Assembly: GCA_017983955.1 (NCBI GenBank)
Contig: JAGOAJ010000016.1
Coordinates: forward strand, 1 to 63,655
Source of the DNA: Burkholderiaceae bacterium
Lineage (GTDB): Bacteria > Pseudomonadota > Gammaproteobacteria > Burkholderiales > Burkholderiaceae_B
DNA length: 63,655 bases
Reading direction: 5' to 3'
Below the pieces are notes generated by a model. It saw nothing but the letters and a program-made list of their open reading frames with translations, made no database searches and was not told the DNA's origin. This document shows positions 18,263 through 52,523 of the stretch, in pieces; within the stretch, counting starts at the first letter, position 1, and each line of letters begins with the position of its first letter. Both the position numbers and the translations under genes were made by a program.

Positions 18263-18270
18263 GCCCTGAC

Positions 18271-18310
18271 CCGGTTGCGCCCGCCCGGAAATATGGGCGG
18301 GCGCAACCGG
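18271..18310 (+). promoter_or_regulatory. Long perfect hairpin between livJ and livH
   Basis: Two 16-base arms (CCGGTTGCGCCCGCCC and its exact complement) enclose an 8-base loop 8 bp after the livJ stop. There is no T-run, so it is not a standard terminator. In binding-protein-dependent operons such structures stabilise the upstream message or reduce read-through, giving more binding protein than permease. That role is inferred here. Confidence 0.8.
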
Positions 18311-18345
18311 CCTTGCCGACCTTATATCGGGTTTAAAGGATACAA

Positions 18346-19263: not shown

Positions 19264-19264
19264 C

Positions 19265-20761
19265 ATGAGCAATCTGGCGTTAAACCCCACACTAAATATT
19301 AGCCATTGCCTGAAACAGGCCCTGGTTGCTGGCGTACTGACCATGCTGGTACTGGGCCCCATCAGCAACATCGTTCTGGATCAATACAGTTTTAACTTCC
19401 ACCCCCTGCGCCAGCCGTTAATCGTCAACGGCATACTGTTAGGCGTGGTGGTCGCCATAGGCCGATTCTTTTTTTCCGTACTGGCACAAACACAAGCAGG
19501 CCATAAATTTTTGCAGAACCTGGGCAGAAAAAAAGAACACCACGCCAATGTGGACAGTACATCCAGCGAAAAACGCCGTGCTGTTATCAGTTTATTAGGG
19601 ATGTCTGTGCTGTGTTGCGTGCTACTGGCCGCACTAGGCTTAGGAGGCATACTGCACAAGGGCGCTGCGTTTGCCTTGGTGCTGATCATACTGTTCGTCT
19701 GGCTAAGTTATGGCATCAGCGTCCCCAAGCTACGCGGTCAAGCCAACACCTGGCGGCTACTGGTGCCCTTGCTGTTTCTGGCGGGTTTTCTGCTGCCTGT
19801 GGTGTTAAACCAAATTGGGCTATTACCCAAAGTATGGTTAAGCAACCTGACCCTGGCCTTGATCTATGTACTGCTGGGCCTGGGGCTAAATATTGTCGTT
19901 GGCATGGCAGGCTTGCTGGACTTGGGCTTTGTCGCCTTTTATGCCGTAGGTGCTTATTTTCTGGCCATGGGCGCGCAATACCTGGAAATGGGCTTTTGGA
20001 CAGCGCTGGTGCTGGCCCCTATTCTGGCGGCCGCTACCGGAGCATTGCTAGGCTTCCCGGTGCTACGCATGCATGGCGACTATCTGGCCATAGTCACCCT
20101 GGGCTTTGGTGAAATCATACGCCTGGTGTTAACGAATTGGATAGACCTGACCGGCGGCCCCAATGGCATGGCGGCGCCTGCACCCACCTTGTTCGGCCTG
20201 GAGTTTTCACGTCGCTCCAGCGACGGTGGGCAAGTATTCCACGAATTCTTCGGCCTGCCTTACAGCAGCGACTACAAAGCTTTGTTTATCTACATGATCC
20301 TGTTCACTGTGGTGGCGATTATGCTGCGCTTTCTGAATCGCCTGCGCTATATGCCCATAGGCCGTTCTTGGGAAGCGTTACGCGAAGACGAGATTGCCTG
20401 CCGGTCGTTGGGTATCAACCACGTCACCGTGAAACTCTCCGCCTTTATGCTGGGCGCGCTATCGGGTGGTGTTGCAGGAGTTTTCTTTGCCACTTACCAA
20501 GGGTTTATCAATCCTTCATCATTCAACTTCTTTGAGTCGGTGCTGATCCTGTCTATCGTGGTGCTGGGCGGCATGGGCTCTACCCTGGGTATTATTATTG
20601 CCGCTTTGGCCCTGACCTTACTGCCGGAATTGATGCGCGACCTGGCCAACTACCGGGTGCTGTTGTTTGGCTTGCTGATGATCGCCATGATGATATGGCG
20701 ACCCTATGGGTTGATACGCCCCAAACGCCCCACGTTTACCGCCAGAGGCCGTAATGAATAG
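19265..20761 (+). CDS. livM: Branched-chain amino acid ABC transporter permease LivM, long form
   Basis: This 498-residue permease is longer than the minimal LivM (~300-350) because of a ~170-residue N-terminal extension with extra hydrophobic segments, as in many proteobacterial LivM proteins. The core begins near [27 protein letters not shown] and contains [23 protein letters not shown], the EAA-type loop [15 protein letters not shown], and [10 protein letters not shown]. It overlaps livG by 8 bp. Confidence 0.95.
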
Positions 20762-21578
20762 CCCCGCCAAGCCACTATTACAGGTAGAAGGCCTGACGCG
20801 CCGCTTTGGTGGCATTATCGCCAATAACGATGTCAGCTTCGATGTAGCGCAAGGGTCGATTACCGCCCTGATAGGCCCCAATGGCGCAGGCAAAACCACG
20901 GTGTTCAATTGCATCACCGGCTTTTACCGCGCATCGGCAGGAAAAATCACGCTATGGGACCAGGACCAGTCTGTCGAGGTTGGCGACTTACTATCCCGGC
21001 CATTTACAGGCGGTTCCTACCTGGTTGCGCGAGCCGGCATTGCCCGCACTTTTCAAAACATTCGGTTGTTCAGCGATATGACCGTACTCGAAAACCTGCT
21101 GGTGGCTCAACACCGACGCCTGGACGGTAACCTGATACGCGGCATGATGGCCTCGGCCAGCTTTCTGAATAAAGAACATGACGCACTGGATAAGGCCTAT
21201 CACTGGCTGGACATCATGGATTTGCGCCGTGATGCCAATAAGCTGGCTGGGGAATTGTCCTATGGGCGTCAACGACGCTTGGAAATTGCACGCTCTATGT
21301 GTACTTCTCCAAGGCTGATTTGCCTGGACGAACCCGCCGCCGGCCTTAACCCCAGCGAAACCGAACAACTATCCGAACTAATCCAGCGCCTACGCGACGA
21401 ACACAACGTCACCATATTGCTAATAGAGCACGATATGGGGCTGGTCATGGAGGTTTCCGAACATATCGTCGTATTGGATTACGGCCAGGTCATCGCCGCA
21501 GGCGACCCGGATAGCGTGCGCGATGCGCCTGCGGTTATTGCCGCCTACCTGGGCACCGACACCGAGGAGACCACATGA
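20754..21578 (+). CDS. livG: Branched-chain amino acid ABC transporter ATP-binding protein LivG
   Basis: This 274-residue ATPase drives the Liv transporter with LivF. Walker A is GPNGAGKTT at 41-49. The signature is the LivG-type [15 protein letters not shown] near residue 167 instead of LSGGQ, and Walker B is [13 protein letters not shown]. The long insert between Walker A and the signature is usual for LivG. The stop overlaps the livF start by 4 bp. Confidence 0.96.
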
Positions 21579-22303
21579 CCACACCCGTACTTGAACTACG
21601 TCAGGTCAACACCTATTACGGGGCGATCCAGGCCCTGCGTGATGTCAGCCTGCATATTAATACGGGTGAAATCGTAACCTTGATAGGGGCCAATGGCGCA
21701 GGCAAAAGCACCCTGCTGATGACTATTTTTGGTGCACCCAAAGCCGCCAGCGGCAGCATAGTCTACAAAGGCACGGAACTGACTCGCTTGCCCGCCCATG
21801 ACATCGCCCGCCAGGGCATAGCCCAGGTTCCAGAGGGGCGACGTATTTTCGGCAGCATGACAGTTGAAGAAAACATCATGATAGGTACGCTACCGGTGGG
21901 CCCCAAACATGCTGACGCCGACAAGCTAGCCATGTTTGAACTATTCCCCCGCCTGAAAGAACGACGCAATCAGCGGGCCGGCACCTTGTCTGGCGGCGAG
22001 CAGCAAATGCTGGCCATTGCCCGTGCTCTGATGGGTCGCCCAGACACTATTTTGCTAGACGAACCCAGCCTGGGTCTGGCCCCCTTGATCGTCAAGCAAA
22101 TCTTTGAAATTCTGCAAGAAATAAAATCCCTGGGGAAAACCATTTTTCTGGTTGAGCAAAATGCTCATCATGCTTTACGGCTGGCTGATAGAGGCTATGT
22201 CTTGGTCAACGGCCGCATACAGCTTACGGGAACAGGATCTGAGCTATTGGCCAATACCGATATACGCGACGCCTATTTAGGAAAAAGGAAGCGCACTGCC
22301 TAA
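21575..22303 (+). CDS. livF: Branched-chain amino acid ABC transporter ATP-binding protein LivF
   Basis: This 242-residue second ATPase has Walker A GANGAGKST at 38-46, the signature LSGGEQQMLAIARAL near 139, and Walker B TILLDEPSLGLAP. The VPEGRRIFGSMTVEENI segment is characteristic of LivF. It closes the transporter operon and is followed after 47 bp by a regulator on the same strand. Confidence 0.96.
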   Translation: MTTPVLELRQVNTYYGAIQALRDVSLHINTGEIVTLIGANGAGKSTLLMTIFGAPKAASGSIVYKGTELTRLPAHDIARQGIAQVPEGRRIFGSMTVEENIMIGTLPVGPKHADADKLAMFELFPRLKERRNQRAGTLSGGEQQMLAIARALMGRPDTILLDEPSLGLAPLIVKQIFEILQEIKSLGKTIFLVEQNAHHALRLADRGYVLVNGRIQLTGTGSELLANTDIRDAYLGKRKRTA

Positions 22304-31263: not shown

Positions 31264-32274
31264 TTAGCCCTTAACTTCCTTGATGATGCTGTCAACTATG
31301 TCAGCACCTATTTTTTTCTTCACCAAGTCATATATAGGTCCCATCTTGCTGGCAAAAGCGGCCTGTTCTTCAGGAGTCAACTCGGTAATCGTTACATCCG
31401 TCATTTTTTCCACAGCAGCGTCATCGGCTTTCTGGGCCAGCCCACGCTGATAATCTGTAGTTTCCTTCATGACTTGGGCAAAGACTTCCTTGTCAGCGTC
31501 GCTAAACCGCGCGTAGACGTCAGGATTGATCAGGACGGGCCAAGGGGAATAGACGTGATTGGTTTTACTGATGAACTTCTGCACTTCGTAGAACTTCATG
31601 TCGTAAAATAAGTTGATGGGGCCTTCCTGGGCATCAAAGGTGCCTTGCTGCAGGGCGGTAAACAGCTCGCCAAATGCCAAGGGCGCAGGATTAGCACCTT
31701 CTTCCCGCCAGGCTGCAATATGGACTTCGTTTTCCATAGTGCGCATTTTCATGCCTTGCAGGTCATCGGGTGTTTTGATGATTTTCTTGCTGTTGGTCAA
31801 CTGACGGAAACCGTTTTCCCAGTAACCTACCGCTTTGATTCCAACCTTGCTTAGGCTGTCCAACAGGCCCTGACCAATTTTCCCATCCAGCACGCGGTAA
31901 ACACTGTCGCGATCAGTAAAGATAAAGGGAATATCCAACGCGAAGAATTCTTGGTTAAAACCACCCAGTACGGCCGAGGATACAAAGGTCATATCCACGT
32001 TGCCCAACTGTATGCTTTCGATCAGTTCACGCTCGCTGCCCAGTTGCGAGTTAGGGAAAATTTCAATGGTGATACGACCATCGGTTTTTTCAGCCAACTG
32101 CTTGCCCATGTGCTCTAGAGCCAAATGGCCGGTATTGGATGTTGAGGCCGCATGGCCAGCTTTCAGCACGATGTTACTAGCGACAGCCTGAGTCGATGCA
32201 CCGATAGAAAAAGCACACAAACCGGCAGCCATTACTGCCGAACGCACGAATTTTTTTGGAAGCTTGAAAAACAT
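31264..32274 (-). CDS. TRAP transporter substrate-binding protein DctP (copy without adjacent permeases)
   Basis: This 336-residue periplasmic binding protein has a signal peptide (about 1-32, ending QAVAS). The DctP/TeaA-type body includes LGSERELIESIQLGNVDMTF and the ligand-binding arginine region KMRTMENEVHI. By hand alignment it is about 87% identical to the protein encoded at 36745-37758, with differences concentrated in the signal peptide and the C terminus. No DctQM genes adjoin this copy. It heads the run leading into acetaldehyde dehydrogenase and the aldolase, so its ligand probably feeds that pathway. Confidence 0.93.
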   Translation of the reverse strand: MFFKLPKKFVRSAVMAAGLCAFSIGASTQAVASNIVLKAGHAASTSNTGHLALEHMGKQLAEKTDGRITIEIFPNSQLGSERELIESIQLGNVDMTFVSSAVLGGFNQEFFALDIPFIFTDRDSVYRVLDGKIGQGLLDSLSKVGIKAVGYWENGFRQLTNSKKIIKTPDDLQGMKMRTMENEVHIAAWREEGANPAPLAFGELFTALQQGTFDAQEGPINLFYDMKFYEVQKFISKTNHVYSPWPVLINPDVYARFSDADKEVFAQVMKETTDYQRGLAQKADDAAVEKMTDVTITELTPEEQAAFASKMGPIYDLVKKKIGADIVDSIIKEVKG

Positions 32275-36744: not shown

Positions 36745-37758
36745 TTAACCATTCACTTCTTTGATAATGCTGTCAACAATTTCAGCACCCACTTTCTTTT
36801 TCACCATTTCATGAATTGGACCCATCTTGTCGGAAAATGCGGCCAGTTCTTCAGGTGTCAGTTCAGTAATCGTGACTGTAGTCATGGCGGCGACGGCTTC
36901 GTCGTCAGCTTTCTGAGCCAGGCCACGCTGGTAGTCTGTGGTTTCCTTCATGACTTGGGCAAAGACTTCCTTGTCGGCGTCGCTAAAGCGAGCGTAGACG
37001 TCAGGGTTGATCAGCACAGGCCAAGGGGAATAGACGTGGTTGGTTTTACTGATGTACTTCTGTACTTCGAAAAACTTCATGTCGTAAAACAGGTTGATAG
37101 GACCTTCCTGGGCATCGAAAGTACCTTGCTGCAGGGCAGTAAACAGTTCGCCAAACGCCAGCGGGGCTGGGTTAGCGCCTTCTTCACGCCAGGCTGCAAT
37201 ATGGACTTCGTTTTCCATGGTGCGCATTTTCATGCCTTTCAGGTCATCAGGTGTTCTGATTTCCTTCTTGTTGTTGGTCAACTGACGGAAACCGTTTTCC
37301 CAGTAACCAACCGCTTTCATACCAACTTTGTTCAGGCTGTCTAACAGGCCCTGACCAATTTTACCGTCCAGCACGCGGTAGACGCTGTCGCGGTCAGTAA
37401 ACAAGAAAGGAATATCCAGAGCAAAGAACTCCTGATTAAAGCTACCCAGCACGGCCGAGGATACAAAGGTCATGTCCACGTTGCCCAGCTGTATGCTTTC
37501 AACCAATTCGCGCTCACTGCCCAATTGACCGCTAGGGAAAATTTCAATGGTAATACGACCATCGGTTTTTTCGGCCAACTGCTTGCCCATGTGCTCTAGA
37601 GCCAAGTGACCGGAGTTTACCGTCGAAACCACGTGCGCAGCTTTCAGCACTATCTTATCTTTCGCAACAGCCTGACCAGACAAGGCGAGTGAAAAAGCAC
37701 CCAAGCCAACCGTCAATGCGGCCGAGCGCAGGAATTTTTTTGGAAGTTTGAACAACAT
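36745..37758 (-). CDS. dctP: TRAP transporter substrate-binding protein DctP (operon copy)
   Basis: This 337-residue periplasmic protein has a signal peptide (about 1-32, ending QAVAK). The conserved core (LGSERELVESIQLGNVDMTF, KMRTMENEVHIAAWREEGA, QGTFDAQEGPINL) is nearly unchanged from the copy at 31264-32274, giving about 87% identity by hand alignment. It is followed by dctQ and dctM. Upstream lies a succinate-semialdehyde-type dehydrogenase 86 bp away on the same strand. Confidence 0.95.
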   Translation of the reverse strand: MLFKLPKKFLRSAALTVGLGAFSLALSGQAVAKDKIVLKAAHVVSTVNSGHLALEHMGKQLAEKTDGRITIEIFPSGQLGSERELVESIQLGNVDMTFVSSAVLGSFNQEFFALDIPFLFTDRDSVYRVLDGKIGQGLLDSLNKVGMKAVGYWENGFRQLTNNKKEIRTPDDLKGMKMRTMENEVHIAAWREEGANPAPLAFGELFTALQQGTFDAQEGPINLFYDMKFFEVQKYISKTNHVYSPWPVLINPDVYARFSDADKEVFAQVMKETTDYQRGLAQKADDEAVAAMTTVTITELTPEELAAFSDKMGPIHEMVKKKVGAEIVDSIIKEVNG

Positions 37759-41724: not shown

Positions 41725-42543
41725 TTATTTGTCGTTTAGAACAGCATGTAAATCCGTTGCGACCAAACGTTGAGCTGCCGTCTGAGACGCGCCTTCCCAG
41801 TACGTTTTGTCCGCCATCTGCATACGGCCTGCTGTATTGCGCATATGCAAAAAAGCCGCCGCGCGCGCCGCCGTCACATCTTGGTTTTTAATGGCCATAA
41901 ATATCGCACGGTGCTCGCTGCGCACCTGCGCCTTCAAATCTCGATTACTGGCGTCATAGTCACGCGTTAATTTGATCGCGTCCTTGACCGCACGAGTCAA
42001 CATACCCAGCAACGCTGTGTAATGCGGATTGCCCGTGGCACGCGAGATAGCCATGTGAAACGCCAGGTCTTCAAGCACCCCATCCTTACCTGCCCGGACA
42101 GCGCCGTCTATTGCCTGCAACGCATGCTCAATCTGGGCCAGATCAGCCTCTGTGCGGCGCTCTGCCGCCAGCGCAACCATCTCGACCTCTATCCCACGGC
42201 GCAACTCTATGATGTGCAACACTGCCTGCACCGGATCAGGATCGTCCCAGCCCAGGCGAAATGATTCGCTGCGCTTAGGGTCCAGCACCACGGTACCGCT
42301 GCCCTGCCGCGTCTCCACCAAGCCCTCGGACTTCAAGCGCGAAATAGCCTCACGCACTACGGTGCGACTAACACCATACTGCTGAGTCATGAATTTTTCA
42401 GTGGGAAGCCGGGCGCTAACAGGATAGACCCCATCACGAATCTGACGAGTCAGCGCATCAGTGACCTGATCCGCCAATGTCATTTCGGCGGGCGCTTTGT
42501 CCGCCCCCGCGATGGCGGCTGCTGCCTTGTTTGTCTGATTCAT
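41725..42543 (-). CDS. FadR-subfamily GntR transcriptional regulator
   Basis: This 272-residue regulator has a winged HTH at about residues 25-95 (LTRQIRDGVYPVSARLPTEKFMTQQYGVSRTVVREAISRL) and an all-helical FCD effector domain with the His/Asp metal-site pattern DLAFHMAISRATGN. The start at 42543 (MNQTNKA) is favoured over 42591. TTGT-N3-ACAA sites lie upstream of its own gene and of the downstream Ldh-family gene, suggesting autoregulation and control of the alcohol/acid oxidation and TRAP operon. Confidence 0.92.
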   Translation of the reverse strand: MNQTNKAAAAIAGADKAPAEMTLADQVTDALTRQIRDGVYPVSARLPTEKFMTQQYGVSRTVVREAISRLKSEGLVETRQGSGTVVLDPKRSESFRLGWDDPDPVQAVLHIIELRRGIEVEMVALAAERRTEADLAQIEHALQAIDGAVRAGKDGVLEDLAFHMAISRATGNPHYTALLGMLTRAVKDAIKLTRDYDASNRDLKAQVRSEHRAIFMAIKNQDVTAARAAAFLHMRNTAGRMQMADKTYWEGASQTAAQRLVATDLHAVLNDK

Positions 42544-42619
42544 ATTCACACCCCACACCAAAAAATAAAAGTGCGCGAAGCACCTAGGCATCTTACCACT
42601 CTAGGGATGAATTTTGGTT

Positions 42620-42636
42620 AAGTTGTAGGACAACTT
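42620..42636. promoter_or_regulatory. Candidate GntR operator upstream of the FadR-type regulator
   Basis: AAGTTGTAGGACAACTT is a perfect 7+3+7 inverted repeat containing TTGT-AGG-ACAA. It lies 77 bp upstream of the regulator start and overlaps the end of the racemase gene. It has the same half-sites and spacing as the two sites upstream of the Ldh-family gene. Confidence 0.65.
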
Positions 42637-43501
42637 ATGCGGACATGTGGAGTAATTCGTACGTCAGCCCTTCGAAATAGATCTGATCATCGCCAAAAAA
42701 GCGCTGCGCAATTTTCATGATCTTTTCTGGATTAGCAGAGGTATAAAAAGAGATTCCGGGTCGGTCATCTTCCACAAACTCCGGATGACGACCCAGGTAA
42801 GCAACCAAGCTTTGAGCCGTTATTTTCGGTTGTGAAAAGATTTCCACGTGACTAGGCAAAGCCTCAACAAAAAGATCCTCGATCAACGGGTAATGCGTGC
42901 AACCAAGTAAAGCCGCCGCCAAATGCTCTCTATCCAGGCGATGCAATAAAAGGCTGACATAGCTCCGAACAGCACTGCGAAGATCGTGCAATGGTGCACC
43001 CGCTTCTATCAATCTAACCAGACTAGGACAGGCTTGTTGAACAACGTGAATGTCTGGGGTGCGCCTTGCTGTTTCATCAATAAATATCCGGCTGTTCACC
43101 GTATACTCTGTTGCGAAGACAGCGACCGTCTTGCTAGCAAAACTTGGTTTAGTTGCAGCGTGCGTCGTTGACCAGGGTACGCCCGTCATGGCTTCCACCA
43201 TGGGCACAACGACACCAATAACGCGCTTGTCGGGAAAGTGGGTTGGCAACCAGGTCTGCTGCAGTCGACGCAGTCCCGTCGCTGCCGCGGTATTGCACGC
43301 CACCACGACCAATGAGCAGCCCAAGGCAAACAGCCGCGTCAACGACGACAGGGTAAGTTCATAGATGGCGTCGGCATCGCGATCACCGTAAGGCGCGTTG
43401 CCATGATCACCGTAATACACAAAGTGTTGGTCAGGCAACGTCGCCCTGAGCTCTTTTAGAACCGTCAGTCCGCCACTGCCTGAATCAAAAACCCCTATCA
43501 C
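42635..43501 (-). CDS. Glutamate racemase-family protein
   Basis: This 288-residue Asp/Glu racemase has both catalytic cysteines, C69 in VACNTA and C201 in GCTHYPL, plus D6 in FDSGSGG and the GDHGNAPYG block. It therefore looks fully active and MurI-like. It starts with GTG 15 bp after the stop of the amidase gene on the same strand, with GAAGGG upstream, so it is probably the last gene of the amide transporter operon. It may serve cell-wall D-glutamate supply or racemise an amino acid released by the amidases; the sequence cannot tell these apart. Confidence 0.88.
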   Translation of the reverse strand: MIGVFDSGSGGLTVLKELRATLPDQHFVYYGDHGNAPYGDRDADAIYELTLSSLTRLFALGCSLVVVACNTAAATGLRRLQQTWLPTHFPDKRVIGVVVPMVEAMTGVPWSTTHAATKPSFASKTVAVFATEYTVNSRIFIDETARRTPDIHVVQQACPSLVRLIEAGAPLHDLRSAVRSYVSLLLHRLDREHLAAALLGCTHYPLIEDLFVEALPSHVEIFSQPKITAQSLVAYLGRHPEFVEDDRPGISFYTSANPEKIMKIAQRFFGDDQIYFEGLTYELLHMSA

Positions 43502-43516
43502 TACTTTTTTTTCCCT

Positions 43517-44923
43517 TCAGATATTCGGTGCCTGCCTATAAAACTTCGTCACGGCCTCAAACTGAGCTCCAATACGGAACAGAGTTGCTTCATCGAACGG
43601 TTTACCGATGATCTGCATACCCACTGGCAAGCCGCCATCATCGAACCCACACGGTACGTTCAGTGCAGGAAGTCCCGTCAAGCTAGGCACGCCAGTGAAC
43701 TGCATGATTGCCGATAGCATATCTTCCTCTTCCCCGTTCTCTATAACCACTTTCATTGCGCCAACGTCCGTGGCGGTGAATGGCAGGGTCGGGCAGATAA
43801 AGACGTCAACGCGTTTGAAAGCTTCCAGAAACTCTTCACGCAGCAAGGCGCGATAGCGCTGGGCCTGAACATAGTGCGTGCCCAGCAGCATCTCACCCGC
43901 GTCCAGCAGTGCGCGTACATCGTCGCCATAGTCATCGGGACGTTCGCGCAGCCATCGCTGATGGTAGGCACTAGGCTCTACGGATTCAATCGTCAACTGA
44001 GCGGAGATATTACCTTCAATATTGGTGATCGGGATGTCGATCACCATAGCGCCCAGGCTTTCGAACGTCTTCAATGCTGTCGTCACGCTATCCTTGACTG
44101 CACCTTGCAAGTGCGAGAAGAAGTAATTGGGGACGACGCCTATGCGCAAGCCTTTAATATCCAGATGAAGGTCACGGGTATAGTCCACCAGCGGCTGCAA
44201 AGCGCTGGCGGGGTCGTTGTGATCATGCCCAGCAATGACGTTGAACATGATCGCGCAATCTTCAACAGTGCGAGTCATGGGGCCCGCCGTATCCATGCTC
44301 CAGGCCAATGGGATAATACCCCGATTGCTAACGCGCCCGTACGTGGGTCGCATCCCGACGATGCCGTTGATAGCAGACGGCAGCCGCACGCTGCCGCCAG
44401 TATCAGTGCCAATCGAGCCATAACATGTTCTAGCAGCCACGGCCACACCGGAGCCGCCACTGGAACCGGCTGGAAATTTATCCGTGTTCCAGGGGTTGCG
44501 AACGGCTCCGTAGTGCGGGTTGTCGGAAGTGCCGCCCCAAGCGAATTCGTGCATGTTGCACTTGCCAAGAAAGATGGCACCCGCTCCGCGCAGACGATGA
44601 GCAATGGTGGCATCCTCCTCTGGGTACCAGTCTGAAAGAACTTTGCTACCTGCGGTGGTGCGTTTTCCCTTGAGCGCAATATTATCCTTTAGCGAGACCG
44701 GTACGCCGTGCAGTGCGCCCAGGTCGTGGCCAGCCATGATCATGGCCTCGGATGCTTTGGCGACTTGAGTAGCTTCCTCGGCAAAAACACTAATATAGGC
44801 GTGCGTTTTACTGTTGACGGCATCAATACGCGCCAGGCAAACCTCTACGAGATCAACAGGCGATACTTCTTTTTTCTTCACAGCTGTAGCCGCTTGGGCC
44901 AGCGTCAGTTCCTGCAAGTCCAT
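43517..44923 (-). CDS. AtzE/GatA-like amidase
   Basis: This 468-residue amidase-signature enzyme has the full triad: Lys79 (VSLKDN), cis-Ser155 (AGSSGGSG) and Ser178 (GTDTGGSVR). The start at 44923 (MDLQELT) has AGGAG upstream; the longer frame to 44998 overlaps the small upstream gene. A 68-residue AtzG-like protein is encoded 16 bp upstream. In the cyanuric-acid pathway AtzG partners the amidase AtzE, which hydrolyses 1-carboxybiuret. Substrate here is unknown, but the transporter context points to an imported amide or ureido compound. Confidence 0.9.
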   Translation of the reverse strand: MDLQELTLAQAATAVKKKEVSPVDLVEVCLARIDAVNSKTHAYISVFAEEATQVAKASEAMIMAGHDLGALHGVPVSLKDNIALKGKRTTAGSKVLSDWYPEEDATIAHRLRGAGAIFLGKCNMHEFAWGGTSDNPHYGAVRNPWNTDKFPAGSSGGSGVAVAARTCYGSIGTDTGGSVRLPSAINGIVGMRPTYGRVSNRGIIPLAWSMDTAGPMTRTVEDCAIMFNVIAGHDHNDPASALQPLVDYTRDLHLDIKGLRIGVVPNYFFSHLQGAVKDSVTTALKTFESLGAMVIDIPITNIEGNISAQLTIESVEPSAYHQRWLRERPDDYGDDVRALLDAGEMLLGTHYVQAQRYRALLREEFLEAFKRVDVFICPTLPFTATDVGAMKVVIENGEEEDMLSAIMQFTGVPSLTGLPALNVPCGFDDGGLPVGMQIIGKPFDEATLFRIGAQFEAVTKFYRQAPNI

Positions 44924-44939
44924 TATCTGTCTCCTGATT

Positions 44940-45146
44940 TCAGCGCCGAGCACCAAGGGTAAAAATAGTGCCTGGTAATTGATCACGCACCTCGTCACGG
45001 GCCATACGCTCGCTTAACGCATTCGCAGCAGGTACCCAAGCTTGCAAGATGGGCAGAACGGCCTGCTTGCGAGCGCTGTTTAATGGTAGGTCGGCGTAGC
45101 GCGCCAAGGCATCCAGGCCTTGATCGGTAACAATGTCATCGGTCAT
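44940..45146 (-). CDS. AtzG-like small amidase subunit (DUF4089 type)
   Basis: This 68-residue protein (start MTDDIVTDQG at 45146) has the pattern of DUF4089/AtzG proteins: DALARYADLPLNSARKQAVLPILQAW, then a helix resembling GatC. AtzG forms a complex with AtzE and is needed for its folding or activity. It sits directly between the last transporter ATPase gene (34 bp upstream) and the amidase gene (16 bp downstream), as expected for a dedicated subunit. A longer frame to 45188 overlaps the ATPase gene. Confidence 0.82.
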   Translation of the reverse strand: MTDDIVTDQGLDALARYADLPLNSARKQAVLPILQAWVPAANALSERMARDEVRDQLPGTIFTLGARR

Positions 45147-45180
45147 GTGCAGTTCCTTATTTCTATGTTCAAACACCTTG

Positions 45181-45876
45181 TCAGGCAAAGTGACCCAGTG
45201 CAGACTCTTCTGTTAACTCTTCAGGCCGCAGCTCTTGAGTGATGGCACCCTTGTGGATCAGCAGCACACGGTCGGAAAGCTGGCGGATGAAATCGATGTT
45301 TTGCTCGACCAACAAGATCGTCAGTCCCATCTGCACACGGATTTCTTTCAGCGTATCCACGATTTCGTCAATAATCGACGGCTGAATACCTTCGGTGGGT
45401 TCGTCCAAAAGCAATAAGCGCGGCCTGGAAATCAAAGAACGTGCCAATGCCAGTAATTGTTGTTCGCCACCGCTCAGCGCACCGCCGTGCCGCGCAACCA
45501 AGGGCTTGAGGCGCGGAAACTGTTCCAGCATCTCGTCCACACTCATACTGTTTGCAGGGTTAGCCGTAGCTGAAAAGCTTAGGTTCTCAAGTACCGACAG
45601 ACCAGGAAAAATACCTCGCCCTTGCGGTACATAGCCCACCCCCATGCGCGCACGCGCGTGGGTAGGTAATCGCGTAGTGTCAGTACCTGCCAAATCTATG
45701 GACCCGGCGGTTGCAGGCAGCAGGCCCATCAGCGTCTTCAGCAAGGTGGACTTGCCCATGCCGTTATGGCCTAACACCCCCAGGAATTCGGCCTGGGCAA
45801 CATTAAAGCTGACACCGTCCAGAATTGGGATGCGTCCATAGCCAGACGCTAGATCCTTTACGATTAGCATACTCAT
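45181..45876 (-). CDS. UrtE/LivF-like ABC transporter ATP-binding protein
   Basis: This 231-residue ATPase has Walker A GHNGMGKST at 36-44; the GMGK variant is typical of UrtE. The signature LSGGEQQLLALARSL and Walker B LLLLDEPTEGIQPSI also match UrtE. Its ATG overlaps the stop of the preceding ATPase by 4 bp. It is one of two ATPases of the amide/urea-type importer and lies just upstream of the AtzG-like gene. Confidence 0.92.
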   Translation of the reverse strand: MSMLIVKDLASGYGRIPILDGVSFNVAQAEFLGVLGHNGMGKSTLLKTLMGLLPATAGSIDLAGTDTTRLPTHARARMGVGYVPQGRGIFPGLSVLENLSFSATANPANSMSVDEMLEQFPRLKPLVARHGGALSGGEQQLLALARSLISRPRLLLLDEPTEGIQPSIIDEIVDTLKEIRVQMGLTILLVEQNIDFIRQLSDRVLLIHKGAITQELRPEELTEESALGHFA

Positions 45877-46601
45877 GTCGTTTTTCCTCGTCCCAGATAA
45901 ACGTCGCGTACTTGCTGGTTGCTGACGACCTCGTCAAACGTGCCTTCTGTCAGGATGCGACCCCGGTGAAAGACAGTAACCATCCGTGCAATTTTTCCGA
46001 TGAACGCCATGTCGTGTTCAACGACGACAATGGCCGCCTGCTGGTTCAACTCCTGGATCAGTTCGGCCATGCGTTGCGTTTCCTCTTCGCTCATGCCGGC
46101 AGCGGGTTCGTCGAACAAAATCACCTTCGGGTCGCGAGCAATGACCATGCCGATTTCTACCCACTGGCGCTGGCCGTGAGCCAATTCACCCACCAGCTTG
46201 CGGGATACAGAACCCAAGCCCAGTCGTGTTTTGAGTTGCTCGGTTCGTTCACTTGCCTCATCGGCTCCACGTACGCTACGCGCAGCAAGCCACAGGTTCT
46301 CGTCAACAGACAAGCCGTCCAGAACAGTCGGCACCTGATTTTTGATACCCATGCCCAGCTTTGCAATGGCATGTTGCTCTGCGCGACGGATACTTCGGCC
46401 CCCAAAGAGGATATCTCCGCCGGTGGGCTTGAGTTGCCCGCTCAATAGCTTGAAAAAAGTGCTTTTGCCTGCGCCATTAGGACCAATCAGGCAACGTAGT
46501 TCACCGCTACGCAAGGTGAAGTCAATACTGCTTAGCGCCTTCACCCCGCCGAAGCTCTTTTCTACACCGCGCGCCTCCAGGATGATGTCTTGGTTTGCCA
46601 T
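45873..46601 (-). CDS. UrtD/LivG-like ABC transporter ATP-binding protein
   Basis: This 242-residue ATPase has Walker A GPNGAGKST at 40-48, the signature LAHGQRQWVEIGMVIARDPK (UrtD-type rather than LSGGQ) and Walker B VILFDEPAAGMSEEET. It lies 3 bp downstream of the UrtC-like permease gene and overlaps the UrtE-like gene by 4 bp. Confidence 0.92.
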   Translation of the reverse strand: MANQDIILEARGVEKSFGGVKALSSIDFTLRSGELRCLIGPNGAGKSTFFKLLSGQLKPTGGDILFGGRSIRRAEQHAIAKLGMGIKNQVPTVLDGLSVDENLWLAARSVRGADEASERTEQLKTRLGLGSVSRKLVGELAHGQRQWVEIGMVIARDPKVILFDEPAAGMSEEETQRMAELIQELNQQAAIVVVEHDMAFIGKIARMVTVFHRGRILTEGTFDEVVSNQQVRDVYLGRGKTT

Positions 46602-46604
46602 GAT

Positions 46605-47645
46605 TCAGTCCTCCTGCTCTTTCTGGGGCATTACGCGTCCGATAACGCTATGCAGCGCAGGCACTAGCCCTTGAGGCAATAGCAGCACGCAAAGGATTAG
46701 GATGAATCCTAGAAACACCGTCACTTGACCCACGCCCACCGTACCTAGCCAAGTCGTCAGGTACTGGATGAGCAGTGTGCCGACGATAGGCCCTAACAGA
46801 GTGGAGCGTCCGCCTACAATCACCCAAATGACGACCATAGCGGCTTGATTAAGACCGAACATTTCGGGCCCCACAAAGCTTCCCCACAATGCATACAAAC
46901 CACCGGCCAGGCCAGCGATGCCGCCAGCGATAACAAACGCCAGCAATTTGTATAAGCGGCTGTCATAGCCTAGCAATTCCATGCGGTTCTCGTTCTCACG
47001 CAAACCCACCAGAACACGGCCCGCCGTACTAGCCAAGAACAGCCTGATGCCCACGTAAACGACCAGCAAAAAGAATAGCGCCAAATAGAAGATGCCATCG
47101 ATGGATTGCAAGTCGATCGGCCCGATCTGAAAGGGTAAACCTGGCAGGCCTGGGATACCATTTTGCCCGTTCAAGCGAACGCTACCGATTACGTACTCTG
47201 GGCCTGAGGTTGACCGCACAGCCTTTTCGAAGATCAGCGTCACTACCAGCGTAATTACACTAAGGTAGATATCACTAATACGACCAAATATCATGAAGTA
47301 GCCCAGCACCAGGGCAAACAGCATAGGTACAACTACTGCCAGCACAAAGGCTGCGCCTGCCATATCTGTATTCAGGCTGAACAACGCATAGGTATAACCG
47401 CCCAGGCCGAAGAAAATCGTTTGCCCGAAACTCAGAATACCAACATAGCCCCATAAAAATGCCATGCTAAGCGCCAGTAATGACAAGATAAGCACTAGCG
47501 ACAGATCAAGCTGCAACGCCATATCGCCATATACGGGAATTGCCAGCATCAGCAAGAAGCAGACGACTACCGCCGTCCACCAAGAACGGCGCGGCGACTG
47601 ACCTGCGTGGGCATCAAAACCCATGGAAAATGTTGAGCCATTCAT
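46605..47645 (-). CDS. UrtC/LivM-like ABC transporter permease
   Basis: This 346-residue inner-membrane permease has about nine hydrophobic segments. Motifs include LLALSMAFLWGYVGILSFGQTIFFGLGGYTYAL, typical of UrtC/FmdF proteins, and ENENRMELLGYDSRLYKLLAFVIAGG as the coupling loop. It lies 1 bp downstream of the UrtB-like gene, showing tight operon packing. Confidence 0.92.
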   Translation of the reverse strand: MNGSTFSMGFDAHAGQSPRRSWWTAVVVCFLLMLAIPVYGDMALQLDLSLVLILSLLALSMAFLWGYVGILSFGQTIFFGLGGYTYALFSLNTDMAGAAFVLAVVVPMLFALVLGYFMIFGRISDIYLSVITLVVTLIFEKAVRSTSGPEYVIGSVRLNGQNGIPGLPGLPFQIGPIDLQSIDGIFYLALFFLLVVYVGIRLFLASTAGRVLVGLRENENRMELLGYDSRLYKLLAFVIAGGIAGLAGGLYALWGSFVGPEMFGLNQAAMVVIWVIVGGRSTLLGPIVGTLLIQYLTTWLGTVGVGQVTVFLGFILILCVLLLPQGLVPALHSVIGRVMPQKEQED

Positions 47646-47646
47646 G

Positions 47647-48540
47647 CTACATACCTTTCTTCATTCGACCAGTGATGCCTAGGGGAAGCAGGCGCAACAG
47701 CAGGACCGCTGCAATCAGCATAGAGACTTCACCCGTAACAGAACTGTAGATATAGGACACCACCCCATCGATAGCGCCAAAGATGGATGAAGCGGCAGTT
47801 GCGCCTATCAGTGGAAGATGGCCACCAACGATGACGGTGATGAAAGCCTTTGCGATGAAAAAGGCACCCATGGCAGGGCTGACGCCGGTGATCGGCGCCA
47901 AAGCGGCACCTGCCAGCCCTGCCAGGCAAGAGCCAAAGCCGAAAGTCGCCATGTAGACTTTGGAGCGATCTACTCCCAGGCAACTGGCCACCTCTGGCAC
48001 CTGCATGGTGCCGCGCACTATAAGCCCCACCTTCGTGCCCACGGCCAGCCACCATGTAAGTAGCGCCAGGGCGATCGAGAACGCACAAACAATCAGGTTG
48101 TACGACGATACGTTCATTCCGCCGATGCTGACGTTGGTGAATTCCGTGGAGATCCCCATACCCGACGCACCGAAGATGGTAGTTGCTGCCCCTACAAACA
48201 GTAACGACAGCCCCCAAGTAGCAAGTAAGGTATCGATGATGCGGCCATAAAGAAACCGGATCACAAGCCTCTCGACAATAATGCCCAGCACACCAGTGAC
48301 AAGGCCGCCAAACAGCACGCCCAGCCACAATGGCGCACCAGCATTAACAGTCAATACGCAGGTGTAGCCTCCTACCATCATGAACTCACCATGGGCCAGG
48401 TTAATGACCTTCATCATGCCAAAGATCACTGCCAGTCCCAGGCTGATAAGCAGCATGAGCGATATCGAGAAAATGACCAAGTACAGGCCGGTATAAAATA
48501 CTTCCACAACGTTCTCCCAAGCGACGCCGTTAACCACCAT
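47647..48540 (-). CDS. UrtB/LivH-like ABC transporter permease
   Basis: This 297-residue permease has about eight hydrophobic segments and the signature LGLAVIFGMMKVINLAHGEFMMVGGYT. The VGTKVGLIVRGTMQVPEVASCLGVD segment is the ATPase-coupling loop. It lies 45 bp downstream of the binding-protein gene and 1 bp upstream of the UrtC-like gene. Confidence 0.92.
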   Translation of the reverse strand: MVVNGVAWENVVEVFYTGLYLVIFSISLMLLISLGLAVIFGMMKVINLAHGEFMMVGGYTCVLTVNAGAPLWLGVLFGGLVTGVLGIIVERLVIRFLYGRIIDTLLATWGLSLLFVGAATTIFGASGMGISTEFTNVSIGGMNVSSYNLIVCAFSIALALLTWWLAVGTKVGLIVRGTMQVPEVASCLGVDRSKVYMATFGFGSCLAGLAGAALAPITGVSPAMGAFFIAKAFITVIVGGHLPLIGATAASSIFGAIDGVVSYIYSSVTGEVSMLIAAVLLLRLLPLGITGRMKKGM

Positions 48541-48585
48541 ACTTACGGAAAGAGATAGCGCGCGAACTGCTTATCGCGCCTTCTG

Positions 48586-49824
48586 CTATACCTTGGGTTC
48601 GTACTGTTTGGTATCGTTGGGATTCTCCCGCAGGTTGCATACCTCTTGCGTGTCGCTAGGCGGCTGCTGCTGGAACGATTTGATGACATCAAATCCCTTG
48701 TCCTTGTTGCCAACGGCAATATGGATATCCATAATCGTGTGGTTGGACTGATCATCAATGGTGTATAGCCCACCCGGACCCGCAAACGTGGTACCTGGTA
48801 GCGCCGCAATGACTTTATCCGGGTCCACGCTGCCAGCACGCTTCACAGCTTCCGCCCACAGCATCATCCCGCGATAGCCGTATTCACCGTATTCACCGAT
48901 GTAGTCCGTTTCACCCGTGAAGTCGGCAAAACGCTTTACAAAGCCCCTAGCCGCATCCGTGGGCAAGGTGTCAATAAATGATGCTGCAATGATAGTGCCG
49001 TCATTTTCCTGGGCGCTAAGCATGGCATTTTCCCGGGCGGCGCCATAGACTGTGCCGATCAGTGACATGTTTTTCTTGCCTATCGTGGATTCGAACTGAC
49101 GATAGAAGCTCATATGAGCATCGCCCACTAAAGCTGACCACACAGCGTCGGGCTTCGCGCTCTGGATGCGGCTGAGCACCGGCGCAAAGTTGGTGACGTC
49201 CAGCGGGAAGAATTCAACCGCTACATCCTCTCCGCCTTTTTCTCGAATGAACTTTTGCAACCACTTACTGGTGATATGACCGTAGTTATAGTCAGCTGCC
49301 AGAATGTAATGCTTTTTGGCATTGCGCTCTTTAATCACGTAATCGACCAGTGGTTCAAGCTCTTGTGCCGGAACCATGCCGGTACATACGTGGCGGCGGT
49401 CGCAGACCCCGCCTTCGTACAATGCATTGTAAAAATACAGACCCTTGAAACGCTGCACGATAGGTCGAACCACCTCGCGCGCAGAACTGGCTACAGCGCC
49501 ATGGATCACATCGACTTTGTCTCGTACAAAAGCCTGTGTAGCATACTGCGAATACAGCCGGTTACTGGACTGAGTGTCATAGAAGTTAATCTCCACCTTC
49601 CTGCCCAGTAAGCCGCCACTGGCATTGATCTCGTCGACTGCCATGGCGGCCGCCTTGATCTGCTTAAGGCAATAGTTATTCAGTACCCCCGTCTTGTCCA
49701 AAAGATTAGCGACTTTGATGGGATTAGTGCTATCGATATTCGACTGAGCAAGCAGATTGAAACTACTGGCGTAAGCCAATACGCCTGCTGCGGTCTTGAT
49801 AAAGCCACGTCGGTTAATAGTCAT
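48586..49824 (-). CDS. UrtA/FmdD-like ABC transporter substrate-binding protein
   Basis: This 412-residue periplasmic protein is of the urea/amide-binding UrtA/FmdD/AmiC group. The start at 49824 (MTINRRGFIKTAAGV) has GGAGGAGA upstream and shows a twin-arginine export signal. Body motifs include DKTGVLNNYCLKQIKAAAMAVDEINASGGLLGRKVE and AADYNYGHITSKWLQKF. The linked amidases suggest the ligand is an amide or urea derivative rather than an amino acid, which is inferred. It is first of the transporter genes, 88 bp after the upstream amidase stop. Confidence 0.9.
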   Translation of the reverse strand: MTINRRGFIKTAAGVLAYASSFNLLAQSNIDSTNPIKVANLLDKTGVLNNYCLKQIKAAAMAVDEINASGGLLGRKVEINFYDTQSSNRLYSQYATQAFVRDKVDVIHGAVASSAREVVRPIVQRFKGLYFYNALYEGGVCDRRHVCTGMVPAQELEPLVDYVIKERNAKKHYILAADYNYGHITSKWLQKFIREKGGEDVAVEFFPLDVTNFAPVLSRIQSAKPDAVWSALVGDAHMSFYRQFESTIGKKNMSLIGTVYGAARENAMLSAQENDGTIIAASFIDTLPTDAARGFVKRFADFTGETDYIGEYGEYGYRGMMLWAEAVKRAGSVDPDKVIAALPGTTFAGPGGLYTIDDQSNHTIMDIHIAVGNKDKGFDVIKSFQQQPPSDTQEVCNLRENPNDTKQYEPKV

Positions 49825-49912
49825 GATATCTCCTCCATGAGTCCGCCCCAAGGACAACCTCGGGTGCGGGTGCTGCGTGTAATTTCTATACTTGTATTTA
49901 GACAGCTAACGG

Positions 49913-51325
49913 TTAACTACCAACCAGCGTGGGGCGCTGCTTGTGCCAGTTTGTTTCCCCCTGGAAGGCATGTGCAGCACGCACCAGCAAGTCCTCTCGG
50001 AAATCCGCGCCAACAAACTGGAAACCAAGTGGCGTGCGGGCTTGCGTGAAGCCACCAGGAAGCGTAATAGTGGGTACACCAGCCATGTCAAATGGCGCGG
50101 TATAGCGCATCATTGCAAACCAGCGGTCCACGTACTCCTGACCGGTGACGCTCATTTGAGCAATTGTGGGTGAGGCAATTGGCGTCGTAGGCACCAGAAG
50201 CAGGTCAAGGCCTTGCATCATCGCGCGAAGCTTGCCGGTATAGGCTGCACGTTGCAGCAGGATTTTCTGGTAGTCAGTGGCGCGCAGCGCCCTGCCTGTA
50301 TCGATCAGGCCACTTAGCGCGGGGCCATAAACCTCTTTGCGTGAAGGATAGGTTTCTTCATGTGCCACTGCCGCCTCTACGCTACACAAATTGAACCAGT
50401 TGCGCTGCACATCGGTAGCGTCTGGAGCCTTCACCTCGATAATCTCGGCACCCAACTTGGTCATAATTTCGATAGCCGCATCCATCATCTGGCGCGTGGG
50501 GGCGTCCACATCATCATTGTTCCAGGCCCGGTCTATACCAATGCGCAGGCCTTTCGCGCCACGGTTAATTTCCTGGAGATAGTCCTGGACTGGCATGTGA
50601 CTGGCGGTAGGATCGTTCTCATCCGGCCCAGCGATAGCATGCAGCATGGCCGCAGAGTCTTCCGCGCTACGCGTCATAGGGCCCAAATGGTCTAACGAAG
50701 CAGCCAATTCAAAAGCACCATAGCGGCTGACGCGGCCCCATGTCGGTTTTATGCCCGTCAGTCCGCATGCAGCGGACGGATAGCGGATGGAGCCACCAGT
50801 GTCCGTGCCAATCGCTCCATAACACATGCCGGCTGCAGGTGCGACACCAGAGCCACTGGACGAAACACCTGCCCAGTGGTCGCTATTCCATGGATTCACG
50901 GGCGGGTCGATATCTGGATGGTGGTCTGTCAGAGCGCCTTCAGTTAACTGGACCTTGCCCAGGATCACCGCACCCGCCTCACGCAGACGCTTGACGACTG
51001 TCCCATCTTCACTGGATTGGAATCCACGATGCAAGGTGGTACCAAACGCTGTGGGCGCATCGCTGGTCCAACACAAGTCTTTGACTGCTACTGGCACGCC
51101 GTGCAGGGGGCCGTGCGACTTGCCTTGTGCAATTTCCTGATCGGCACGACGTGCCTCGTTCAGCGCTTGCTCCTGCATCAAGACCACATAACTTTTGAGG
51201 TGGCTATCTAGCTCGCTGATACGTTCGAACTGTTTTTTGGTTACCGTCTCGGATGAAATCTTGCCGGATTGGATTGCCTCACCTATTTCACGCAGGCCCA
51301 TGTAATGCAGGTTTTCGTGGTTCAT
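49913..51325 (-). CDS. Amidase-signature family amidase
   Basis: This 470-residue amidase carries Lys82 (VAVKDL), cis-Ser157 (SSSGSG) and Ser179 (GTDTGGSIR), so the catalytic triad is intact. AGGAGGA lies just before the ATG at 51325. It is the first gene of the minus-strand run that continues into the UrtA-E-like transporter and ends with the AtzG/AtzE-like pair. The two amidases are clearly different paralogues and may act on successive amide bonds. No signal peptide is seen, so it acts in the cytoplasm after import. Confidence 0.9.
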   Translation of the reverse strand: MNHENLHYMGLREIGEAIQSGKISSETVTKKQFERISELDSHLKSYVVLMQEQALNEARRADQEIAQGKSHGPLHGVPVAVKDLCWTSDAPTAFGTTLHRGFQSSEDGTVVKRLREAGAVILGKVQLTEGALTDHHPDIDPPVNPWNSDHWAGVSSSGSGVAPAAGMCYGAIGTDTGGSIRYPSAACGLTGIKPTWGRVSRYGAFELAASLDHLGPMTRSAEDSAAMLHAIAGPDENDPTASHMPVQDYLQEINRGAKGLRIGIDRAWNNDDVDAPTRQMMDAAIEIMTKLGAEIIEVKAPDATDVQRNWFNLCSVEAAVAHEETYPSRKEVYGPALSGLIDTGRALRATDYQKILLQRAAYTGKLRAMMQGLDLLLVPTTPIASPTIAQMSVTGQEYVDRWFAMMRYTAPFDMAGVPTITLPGGFTQARTPLGFQFVGADFREDLLVRAAHAFQGETNWHKQRPTLVGS

Positions 51326-51452
51326 GTCATCCTCCTGGATAAAGTATCGGCATTAATGCCTTTTTTGCTTTAATCCAGATTATGCCCAGTAGCACAAGGA
51401 TGCTTGCCTGAAACCGCCAGTGCGTTTGACTGCAACCGACAAATCAGAAACG

Positions 51453-52400
51453 TTAGTGTTTTTTGCTAGTCAATAGGCTGCTTGGAGATTGTCCATAAGC
51501 CATTTTGAAGACGCGACTAAAGTGTGAAACATCATTAAAGCCGTAACGGAAGGCAGCTTCGGTCACCTGATTCACCCTGCCTTCTGTGAGTGAATAATAT
51601 GCAGCCTCTAGTCGACGCTGCCACACCCAACGCATTGGGGTGATACCACTTTCGGCGAAAATCCGCGTAAGAGTACGCTCGGATACGCGCACTTTAGCCG
51701 CAATGCTATCAACTGTTAGCAACGGATCATCCAGGTGGGATTCAATAAAATACTTGGCGCTTTCGAGCAACTGATTGCGCTGGCTGGACGCTGCCGTGTC
51801 GCCAGCCATTTGCACCTGGATGGCCGCTCCAAGCAGATCCAATAGCGACCCGGCAAACTGTGCCTGCACCGCCGGGGGCAGATCCTCGGATAAGTTGATG
51901 TGGGCTGCCTCTTTGATCATATTCGCAAGCAGGCCGGTAATGGGCTTTTCGGGCGTGAAACGTACTGCCGTATAGCGCTCGGCCTGCGGAGCTCGGTACA
52001 ACAGCTGCTTACGGGGGATGCGCAGTAGTAATACAGACTCTGGACTTAAATCATACGTAAATGGTCTTTCGGCATCGTACAGTACGATATCGCCGCTGTT
52101 TGTTTGCGCGGAACGACCCGATTGTGACAAGTGCCCAGTACCCGATATCATCAGTGCCAGCAAAAATGCCTCGTTGGGGTCCCTGCGCAAATGGGTCGTA
52201 GTGCGGTCCCATACATGACGTGGCGATGACATCCGTGAAACTTCAAGGTCCCCGAGCGATTTTGCCGAGAACTGGCCAATAAAGCCCTGAGGATTATCGA
52301 TCTGACTATTGGCCTGAACGCAGTGTTTACACACAACATCATTCCAGTATTGCGAGCGTTGACGCTCGCTCAATTCCTCAGTTGAAAAGCTCAGCTTCAC
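51453..52400 (-). CDS. AraC-family transcriptional regulator
   Basis: This 315-residue regulator has an N-terminal AraC-binding-like sensor domain and a C-terminal double HTH at about 210-310 (LTVDSIAAKVRVSERTLTRIFAESG, VTEAAFRYGFNDVSHFSRVFKMAYG). The GTG at 52400 is preferred because GGAGG lies just upstream; another GTG at 52415 lacks a site. It lies 127 bp upstream of the first amidase gene on the same strand and is the likely activator of the amide uptake operon. Confidence 0.88.
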   Translation of the reverse strand: MKLSFSTEELSERQRSQYWNDVVCKHCVQANSQIDNPQGFIGQFSAKSLGDLEVSRMSSPRHVWDRTTTHLRRDPNEAFLLALMISGTGHLSQSGRSAQTNSGDIVLYDAERPFTYDLSPESVLLLRIPRKQLLYRAPQAERYTAVRFTPEKPITGLLANMIKEAAHINLSEDLPPAVQAQFAGSLLDLLGAAIQVQMAGDTAASSQRNQLLESAKYFIESHLDDPLLTVDSIAAKVRVSERTLTRIFAESGITPMRWVWQRRLEAAYYSLTEGRVNQVTEAAFRYGFNDVSHFSRVFKMAYGQSPSSLLTSKKH

Positions 52401-52523
52401 TTTGCCTCCCGGCACAGGGGCACACTAGCGCACCCTAATACGTGTACTCCCTTTGAAAGATTACACTAAATATAAGGATCACCCGCACTAGGGTTTCCCC
52501 TTGGAAATATCGAAGGCGTCGCG

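What the first reader, a model, noticed from the sequence alone, without database searches (positions are those of the whole stretch)
42635..52400. Urea/amide-type ABC importer fused in one operon with two amidases, an AtzG-like subunit and a racemase
On the minus strand an amidase, UrtA-, UrtB-, UrtC-, UrtD- and UrtE-like genes, an AtzG-like subunit, an AtzE/GatA-like amidase and a glutamate-racemase-family gene follow each other with gaps of at most about 90 bp and several overlaps, below an AraC regulator. Urt/FmdDEF importers carry urea or short amides. Amidases and AtzG/AtzE hydrolyse amide or ureido bonds. The combination suggests a dedicated uptake-and-hydrolysis route for a compound with two amide-type bonds that releases an amino acid or ammonia. 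I know of no named system with exactly this gene set.
Basis: partly seen in the sequence, partly recalled or inferred. Interest (0 to 1): 0.72.

Follow-up and report, generated by a model that had tools for sequence, protein, structure and literature searches.

The report
Amide importer operon with two amidases
A bacterial gene cluster that most likely imports a small amide and splits it inside the cell for nitrogen; it belongs to a known kind of system, and the racemase gene at its end appears to be a newcomer rather than a conserved working part.

Summary
On the minus strand at 52415-42635 lie AraC, amidase A, a UrtABCDE-like importer, a 68-aa protein, amidase B and a MurI-like racemase. Comparison splits the set.

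(1) Importer and amidases are a real unit: the 19 other importer loci found (binding protein 44-95% identical) all have an amidase-signature gene within about 2.2 kb.

(2) The racemase is not a conserved part: 0 of 19 have it. In the same-genus genome the slot after amidase B holds a terminator-like hairpin and a thioesterase.

(3) The binding protein is UrtA/AmiC-type, but Trp120, Gln144 and Asn246, needed for urea binding in UrtA, are Val, Leu and Val; Ser122 and Tyr190 remain. Urea is unlikely; another carboxamide is likely.

(4) The small protein matches no Pfam AtzG model, but its four best fold matches, weak ones, are GatC. It precedes amidase B in 7 of 7 loci with that gene, so it is probably a GatC/AtzG-type partner.

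UrtABCDE-like importers beside amide hydrolases are already described (PMC3098086, PMC13209695). Verdict: a variant of a known amide uptake-and-hydrolysis operon, plus a lineage-specific racemase insertion.

The parts
51453..52415 (-). AraC-family regulator (AraC_binding_2 + HTH_18; FeaR-like at 140.3 bits, below the FeaR cut-off of 199)
   Evidence: an AraC homologue lies beside the importer in 12 of 19 other loci, four of these only 32-39% identical
49913..51325 (-). Amidase A, amidase-signature enzyme; no signal peptide and the Lys/Ser/Ser motifs present, both judged by eye (motifs recalled)
   Evidence: PF01425 351.8 bits; sequence
48586..49824 (-). UrtA/AmiC-type substrate-binding protein with a twin-arginine-like N-terminus (NRRGFIK; motif recalled); the ORF runs to 49857, the probable start is the ATG at 49824
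47647..48540 (-). UrtB-like permease
46605..47645 (-). UrtC-like permease
45873..46601 (-). UrtD-like ATPase
45181..45876 (-). UrtE-like ATPase
44940..45146 (-). 68-aa helical protein, probable GatC/AtzG-type partner of amidase B
   Evidence: no Pfam or NCBIfam match of weight; alignment A1; fold; profile comparison
43517..44923 (-). Amidase B, GatA-like amidase-signature enzyme (ATG start as in relatives; a longer GTG-start ORF reaches 44998)
   Evidence: PF01425 405.7 bits; GatA 4wj3 324.1 bits against AtzE 6c62 224.9 bits; AtzE and GatA cut-offs not met
42635..43501 (-). MurI-type glutamate racemase, the only match to that model in this assembly; lineage-specific insertion, not a conserved operon member
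   Evidence: TIGR00067 154.7 bits against cut-off 146.65; single hit; absent from 19 of 19 relatives' loci; tree
42620..42636 (-). 17-bp element AAGTTGTCCTACAACTT with 7-bp inverted arms; identical in the same-genus genome before gntR; overlaps the racemase stop codon; likely operator of the next unit
41725..42591 (-). GntR/FCD regulator that opens the next, separate unit (Ldh_2, Fe-ADH, ALDH, TRAP transporter)
   Evidence: same order in L047/L089

Best explanation
The unit 52415-43517 is an AraC-controlled operon for taking up a small carboxamide other than urea and hydrolysing it in the cytoplasm. A UrtA/AmiC-type binding protein, probably Tat-exported, captures the amide and UrtBCDE-like subunits import it. 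Amidase A and amidase B cleave it to ammonia and a carboxylic acid; amidase B probably works as a GatA/AtzE-like enzyme stabilised by the 68-aa GatC-like protein. The racemase at the end (43501-42635) is a later, lineage-specific arrival. It fills a slot that in the same-genus genome holds a terminator-like hairpin and a thioesterase. It is probably either an ordinary glutamate racemase or a mobile catabolic racemase, not a conserved step. Shown here: gene order, linkage, loss of residues needed for urea, absence of the racemase in relatives' loci. Inferred: ligand class, cytoplasmic hydrolysis, the pairing of amidase B with the small protein, regulation. The first two rivals concern the racemase alone and are compatible with the rest of this statement.
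Confidence: 0.72

Rival explanations
1. The racemase is a functional member of the pathway in this species: the amide is chiral or yields glutamate or aspartate, and the racemase lets both stereoisomers be used. (Concerns the racemase only.)
For: It is 15 bp downstream of amidase B on the same strand. Its type occurs near other transport or catabolic genes: after TctC and amidohydrolase in 3 of 7 other genomes, before a Peripla_BP_6 binding-protein gene and UrtE/D/C/B-like genes (up to 39% identical) in one. It has both cysteine motifs.
Against: It is absent from 19 of 19 other importer loci, including the same-genus genome with 95% identical UrtA. It ends on the next unit's conserved palindrome and stands where that genome has a terminator-like hairpin and a thioesterase. 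It passes the general glutamate-racemase cut-off.
Confidence: 0.17
2. The racemase is this organism's MurI for cell-wall D-glutamate, placed at the end of the operon by chance. (Concerns the racemase only.)
For: It is the only TIGR00067 match in the assembly and is over the cut-off. The seven family genomes holding its nearest relatives have no second strong MurI match; further matches there are at most 44 bits.
Against: The same-genus genome G042 (99% complete) has only a 36-bit match and none by the protein; 105 of 151 family genomes have no strong match. So another D-glutamate source seems common here, although some of the weak matches could serve. The assembly is 94% complete, so another copy could be missing.
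Confidence: 0.4
3. It is a urea importer coupled to urea or allophanate hydrolysis.
For: The nearest named models are UrtA-E, and the closest folds are urea-bound UrtA structures.
Against: The urea cut-offs are missed by all five subunits; W120, Q144 and N246 are replaced in 14 of 14 other loci at 65% identity or more. No urease or urea carboxylase gene was among the ORFs scanned; the rest of the genome was not searched for them.
Confidence: 0.05
4. It is an AtzE/AtzG-type route for ureido compounds such as carboxybiuret, as in cyanuric acid breakdown.
For: Amidase B is GatA/AtzE-like and preceded by a GatC/AtzG-like protein. Burkholderiales atzG-atzE-atzH clusters near ABC transporters and amidases are described (PMC6219798, passages).
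Against: AtzE cut-offs are not met: 354.3 against 461 and 339.3 against 425.75. No PF13318 match. Amidase B is closer to GatA than to AtzE. No AtzH or AtzD family appears among the neighbours scanned with Pfam.
Confidence: 0.07
5. It is a branched-chain amino-acid importer (LIV type) with incidental amidases.
For: Same transporter superfamily (PF02653; BCA_ABC_TP_C in UrtD).
Confidence: 0.03

Closest known systems
Urea importer UrtABCDE
   Different: Trp120, Gln144, Asn246 and Ser274 changed; all urea cut-offs missed; linked to amidases
UrtABCDE-like importers beside amide hydrolases (B. japonicum blr0968-blr0973 region, PMC3098086; Pseudomonas veronii Yu15 chromosomal cluster, PMC13209695; passages of both seen; fmdDEF, recalled)
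   Same: Importer next to amide hydrolases; authors propose a non-urea amide as cargo
   Different: Those use acetamidase/formamidase and AmiE-type enzymes; here the enzymes are amidase-signature proteins, one with a probable GatC-like partner
AmiC amide receptor of Pseudomonas aeruginosa
   Different: AmiC is titled a negative regulator of the amidase operon; this protein has a Tat-like N-terminus and importer genes beside it
AtzE/AtzG (1-carboxybiuret hydrolase) and GatA/GatC
   Same: Amidase preceded by a small helical protein; GatC chains are its best, weak, fold matches
   Different: AtzE, GatA and PF13318 cut-offs not met; no AtzH or GatB adjacent
MurI glutamate racemase
   Same: TIGR00067 over cut-off; ACNTAA and GCTHYP cysteine motifs
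   Different: Belongs to a clade apart from the other family MurI in the tree, grouped with two alphaproteobacterial sequences

Membership tests
Urea ABC transporter UrtABCDE | Scores over the NCBIfam cut-offs for UrtA-E | tested here: not met
   UrtA 223.6/492.75, UrtB 198.8/250.3, UrtC 180.1/296.2, UrtD 262.1/304.1, UrtE 264.1/285.8; archaeal UrtA 282.1/494.8, UrtB 242.2/374.25, UrtC 279.9/575.55
Urea ABC transporter UrtABCDE | Urea-binding residues Trp120, Ser122, Gln144, Tyr190, Asn246 (PMC10392092, passages) | tested here: not met
   V, S, L, Y, V (2 of 5 kept)
Urea ABC transporter UrtABCDE | Binds and imports urea | not testable with these tools
   needs a binding assay
UrtA/AmiC structural family (Peripla_BP_5) | Pfam PF13433 over cut-off and UrtA/AmiC fold | tested here: met
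Amide importer plus amidase operon | Importer genes consistently linked to amide hydrolases | tested here: met
   19 of 19 other loci, within about 2.2 kb
Amide importer plus amidase operon | Transport and hydrolysis of a carboxamide | not testable with these tools
   needs growth and enzyme assays
Amidase-signature family | PF01425 over cut-off | tested here: met
   405.7 and 351.8 bits against 27
AtzE family | NCBIfam AtzE models over cut-off | tested here: not met
   amidase B 354.3/461 and 339.3/425.75; amidase A 275.6/461 and 277.2/425.75
AtzG (PF13318) | Pfam AtzG-like model over cut-off | tested here: not met
   not among hits up to E 10 for four of these proteins; the only hit in the genome lies elsewhere, 12.5 bits, below cut-off 24
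GatC/AtzG-type small partner | GatC-like fold | tested here: inconclusive
GatC/AtzG-type small partner | Forms a complex with its amidase | not testable with these tools
   co-expression needed; gene pairing seen in 7 of 7 loci with amidase B
MurI glutamate racemase | TIGR00067 over cut-off and two cysteine motifs | tested here: met
   154.7/146.65; motifs. The PRK00865 models are not met (147.1/328 and 77.6/408)
MurI glutamate racemase | Supplies D-glutamate for the cell wall | not testable with these tools
   needs deletion and D-glutamate rescue

The most novel reading that the evidence does not exclude
The 68-aa protein founds a previously unrecognised GatC-type family that turns a GatA-like amidase into a two-subunit enzyme serving an amide importer. 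This would be a third branch beside GatC/GatA (translation) and AtzG/AtzE (triazine breakdown), acting on an amide not yet known as an imported nutrient.
Probability: 0.4. Interest if true: 0.45.

Novelty: new variant of a known kind. Interest (0 to 1): 0.3.

Why it matters
Automatic annotation would tend to call the importer 'urea' and the last gene part of the pathway. The comparison argues against both: residues needed for urea are missing and the racemase is a newcomer. It gives a clean test case for reading ligand class in UrtA-family proteins, and a candidate new GatC-like partner family. Otherwise it is ordinary nitrogen scavenging.

Tried and rejected
Racemase as conserved operon member: rejected, 0 of 19. 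Urea importer: rejected on cut-offs and pocket. AtzG by Pfam: no match. The 6-sequence profile of the small protein found no PDB sequence up to E 10. A terminator scan limited to short loops did not call the hairpin after amidase B in L047; folding that 61-base stretch alone showed it (-31.5 kcal/mol, z -6.5). The first hhalign run used several loci in the wrong orientation; discarded and redone. Plasmid records gave 45% or so identity (15 of 1175 matching records listed, best 46.5% among them); three of the 15 were read: each has an amidase annotated near the importer, none has an annotated glutamate racemase in the stretch (L098 has an alanine racemase further off). Paper searches on AtzG/AtzE, fmdDEF and amidase plus urea ABC transporter listed no title or abstract start describing this gene set; apart from passages of four papers I saw only listings. 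The 2018 JBC paper on AtzEG (recalled) is not held. A search on MurI in this group was seen as a listing only.

Counting notes. The genome searches with the binding protein scored only the best 4 to 6 candidates per genome and used strict limits (E 1e-130 or 1e-110), so more distant or missed operons are not counted. Likewise the genomes other than G044 and G183 are those of loci L047-L055. The racemase was sought at E 1e-4 in L047-L058 and at 1e-3 in L053-L058 and L085-L095. The small protein was sought with six queries in L053-L058 and L085-L095, but in L049, L050 and L052 only with the window's own copy at E 1e-4. Its copy in L085 is a tblastn match over 64% of the query, not read as an ORF.

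Full report
WHAT IS THERE. The genes exist as described. Reading down the minus strand: AraC regulator 52415-51453, amidase A 51325-49913, UrtA-like binding protein to 48586, UrtB-like 48540-47647, UrtC-like 47645-46605, UrtD-like 46601-45873, UrtE-like 45876-45181, a 68-aa protein 45146-44940, amidase B 44923-43517, MurI-like racemase 43501-42635. After that comes a GntR/FCD regulator with Ldh_2, Fe-ADH, ALDH and TRAP-transporter genes.

WHAT TRAVELS WITH WHAT. Relatives of the binding protein were collected from genome contigs (12 loci), the family (12 of 268 genomes, own included, at E 1e-130), the order (1 of 399, own only) and the phylum (7 of 398, own included, at E 1e-110). After removing duplicates, 19 other loci remain (L047-L058, L085, L086, L090-L094; binding protein 44-95% identical). 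In 19 of 19 at least one amidase-signature gene, recognised by tblastn similarity to the amidases of the window or of L058, lies within about 2.2 kb of the importer. Both amidases of the window type occur in L047, L048 and L055. Four named Achromobacter loci (L049-L052), and L086 from a genome with the same genus label, have AraC plus amidase A without amidase B; L091 has amidase A and an AraC gene beside the importer on the other strand. L053, L054 and L085 have amidase B without amidase A. The remaining 7 (L056-L058, L090, L092-L094) have other amidases; the two scanned, both from L058, belong to subfamily PRK07235, over its cut-off. So one importer is combined with different amidases, which argues against a fixed two-step pathway.

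THE RACEMASE. It is the only glutamate-racemase match in this assembly and has the usual cysteine motifs. It is in 0 of 19 importer loci. Elsewhere in the genomes of the 12 loci, 7 of 12 have some MurI homologue, at 33-46% identity. In the same-genus genome (L047/L089; UrtA 95%, same order through to GntR-Ldh2-FeADH) amidase B is followed by a stable hairpin and T-run (-31.5 kcal/mol, z -6.5), then a 132-aa 4HBT thioesterase, then the 17-bp palindrome AAGTTGTCCTACAACTT that both genomes share before gntR. In the window the racemase fills that interval and its stop codon overlaps the palindrome. Its third-position GC is 0.53 against 0.59-0.62 for the six neighbours measured, a weak sign of foreign origin. 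Relatives of this racemase at 50% identity or more occur in 7 of 150 other family genomes; in the 19-kb regions around them no importer gene reaches 40% identity to this one, though L042 has UrtE/D/C/B-like genes of up to 39%. In a tree of 37 sequences (30 of the matches and the 7) this type groups with two alphaproteobacterial sequences (Roseobacter and Sulfitobacter genomes), apart from the family's other MurI (100/100 support, but on a long branch, and the program warns of long branches meeting); three rows of the type (L014, L016, L017) lack the GCTH pattern. Against the 'chance' reading: three of the seven other genomes have it after a TctC and an amidohydrolase gene, and one has it directly before a Peripla_BP_6 binding-protein gene, so it may be a mobile catabolic racemase. 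It being the cell's MurI is also open.

COMPARISON WITH WHAT IS KNOWN. UrtABCDE-like importers next to amide hydrolases were noted in 2010 for B. japonicum, with the inference that the cargo is an amide other than urea (PMC3098086, passages), and in 2026 for P. veronii with amiE and fmdA (PMC13209695, passages). Burkholderiales clusters of atzG-atzE-atzH with ABC transporters and amidases are in PMC6219798 (passages). The present operon is a variant: two amidase-signature enzymes, one with a probable GatC-like partner, plus an unrelated racemase insertion.

VERDICT. Observation right; uptake-and-hydrolysis reading supported; urea and racemase parts not. Modest interest. The checking of this report changed wording and added results, but no probability.

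Noticed in passing
family-wide search: Only 46 of 151 genomes of this family, own included, have a strong MurI-type match (46 of 151 by protein; 46 with more than 80 bits, another 47 with weak matches of at most 48.4 bits, 58 with none). The same-genus genome G042 (99% complete) has only a 36-bit match. How these bacteria make D-glutamate is not explained here.
   Followed up: partly
L042, L043, L045, L046: The same racemase type sits after a TctC and an amidohydrolase gene in three genomes and before a Peripla_BP_6 binding-protein gene in another, suggesting a mobile gene that lands in transport or catabolic clusters.
   Followed up: partly
L056, L057, L058, L093, L094, L098: In these operons a gene of the antibiotic-biosynthesis-monooxygenase family (PF03992; one copy scanned, the rest by similarity or annotation) lies beside an amidase (before it in L056-L058, after it in L093, L094, L098). 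An extra UrtA/AmiC-like protein is encoded nearby in L056-L058, L090 and L092-L094.
   Followed up: no
window 48586-49824 (alignment A2): All 20 binding proteins share a C-terminal tail with an invariant Cys and N-P-x-D-x-x-Q-Y, plus an invariant Cys152; the two might form a disulfide.
   Followed up: no
window 42620-42636: Palindrome AAGTTGTCCTACAACTT before gntR, identical in the same-genus genome: possible GntR/FCD operator for the Ldh2-FeADH-ALDH-TRAP unit.
   Followed up: partly
window 17138-22303 (+): A separate LIV-type branched-chain amino-acid importer in the same window (LivM model over its cut-off).
   Followed up: no
window 31264-32274 and 36745-37758 (-): Two DctP-type TRAP binding proteins 87% identical to each other in the same window, probably a recent duplication.
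   Followed up: no
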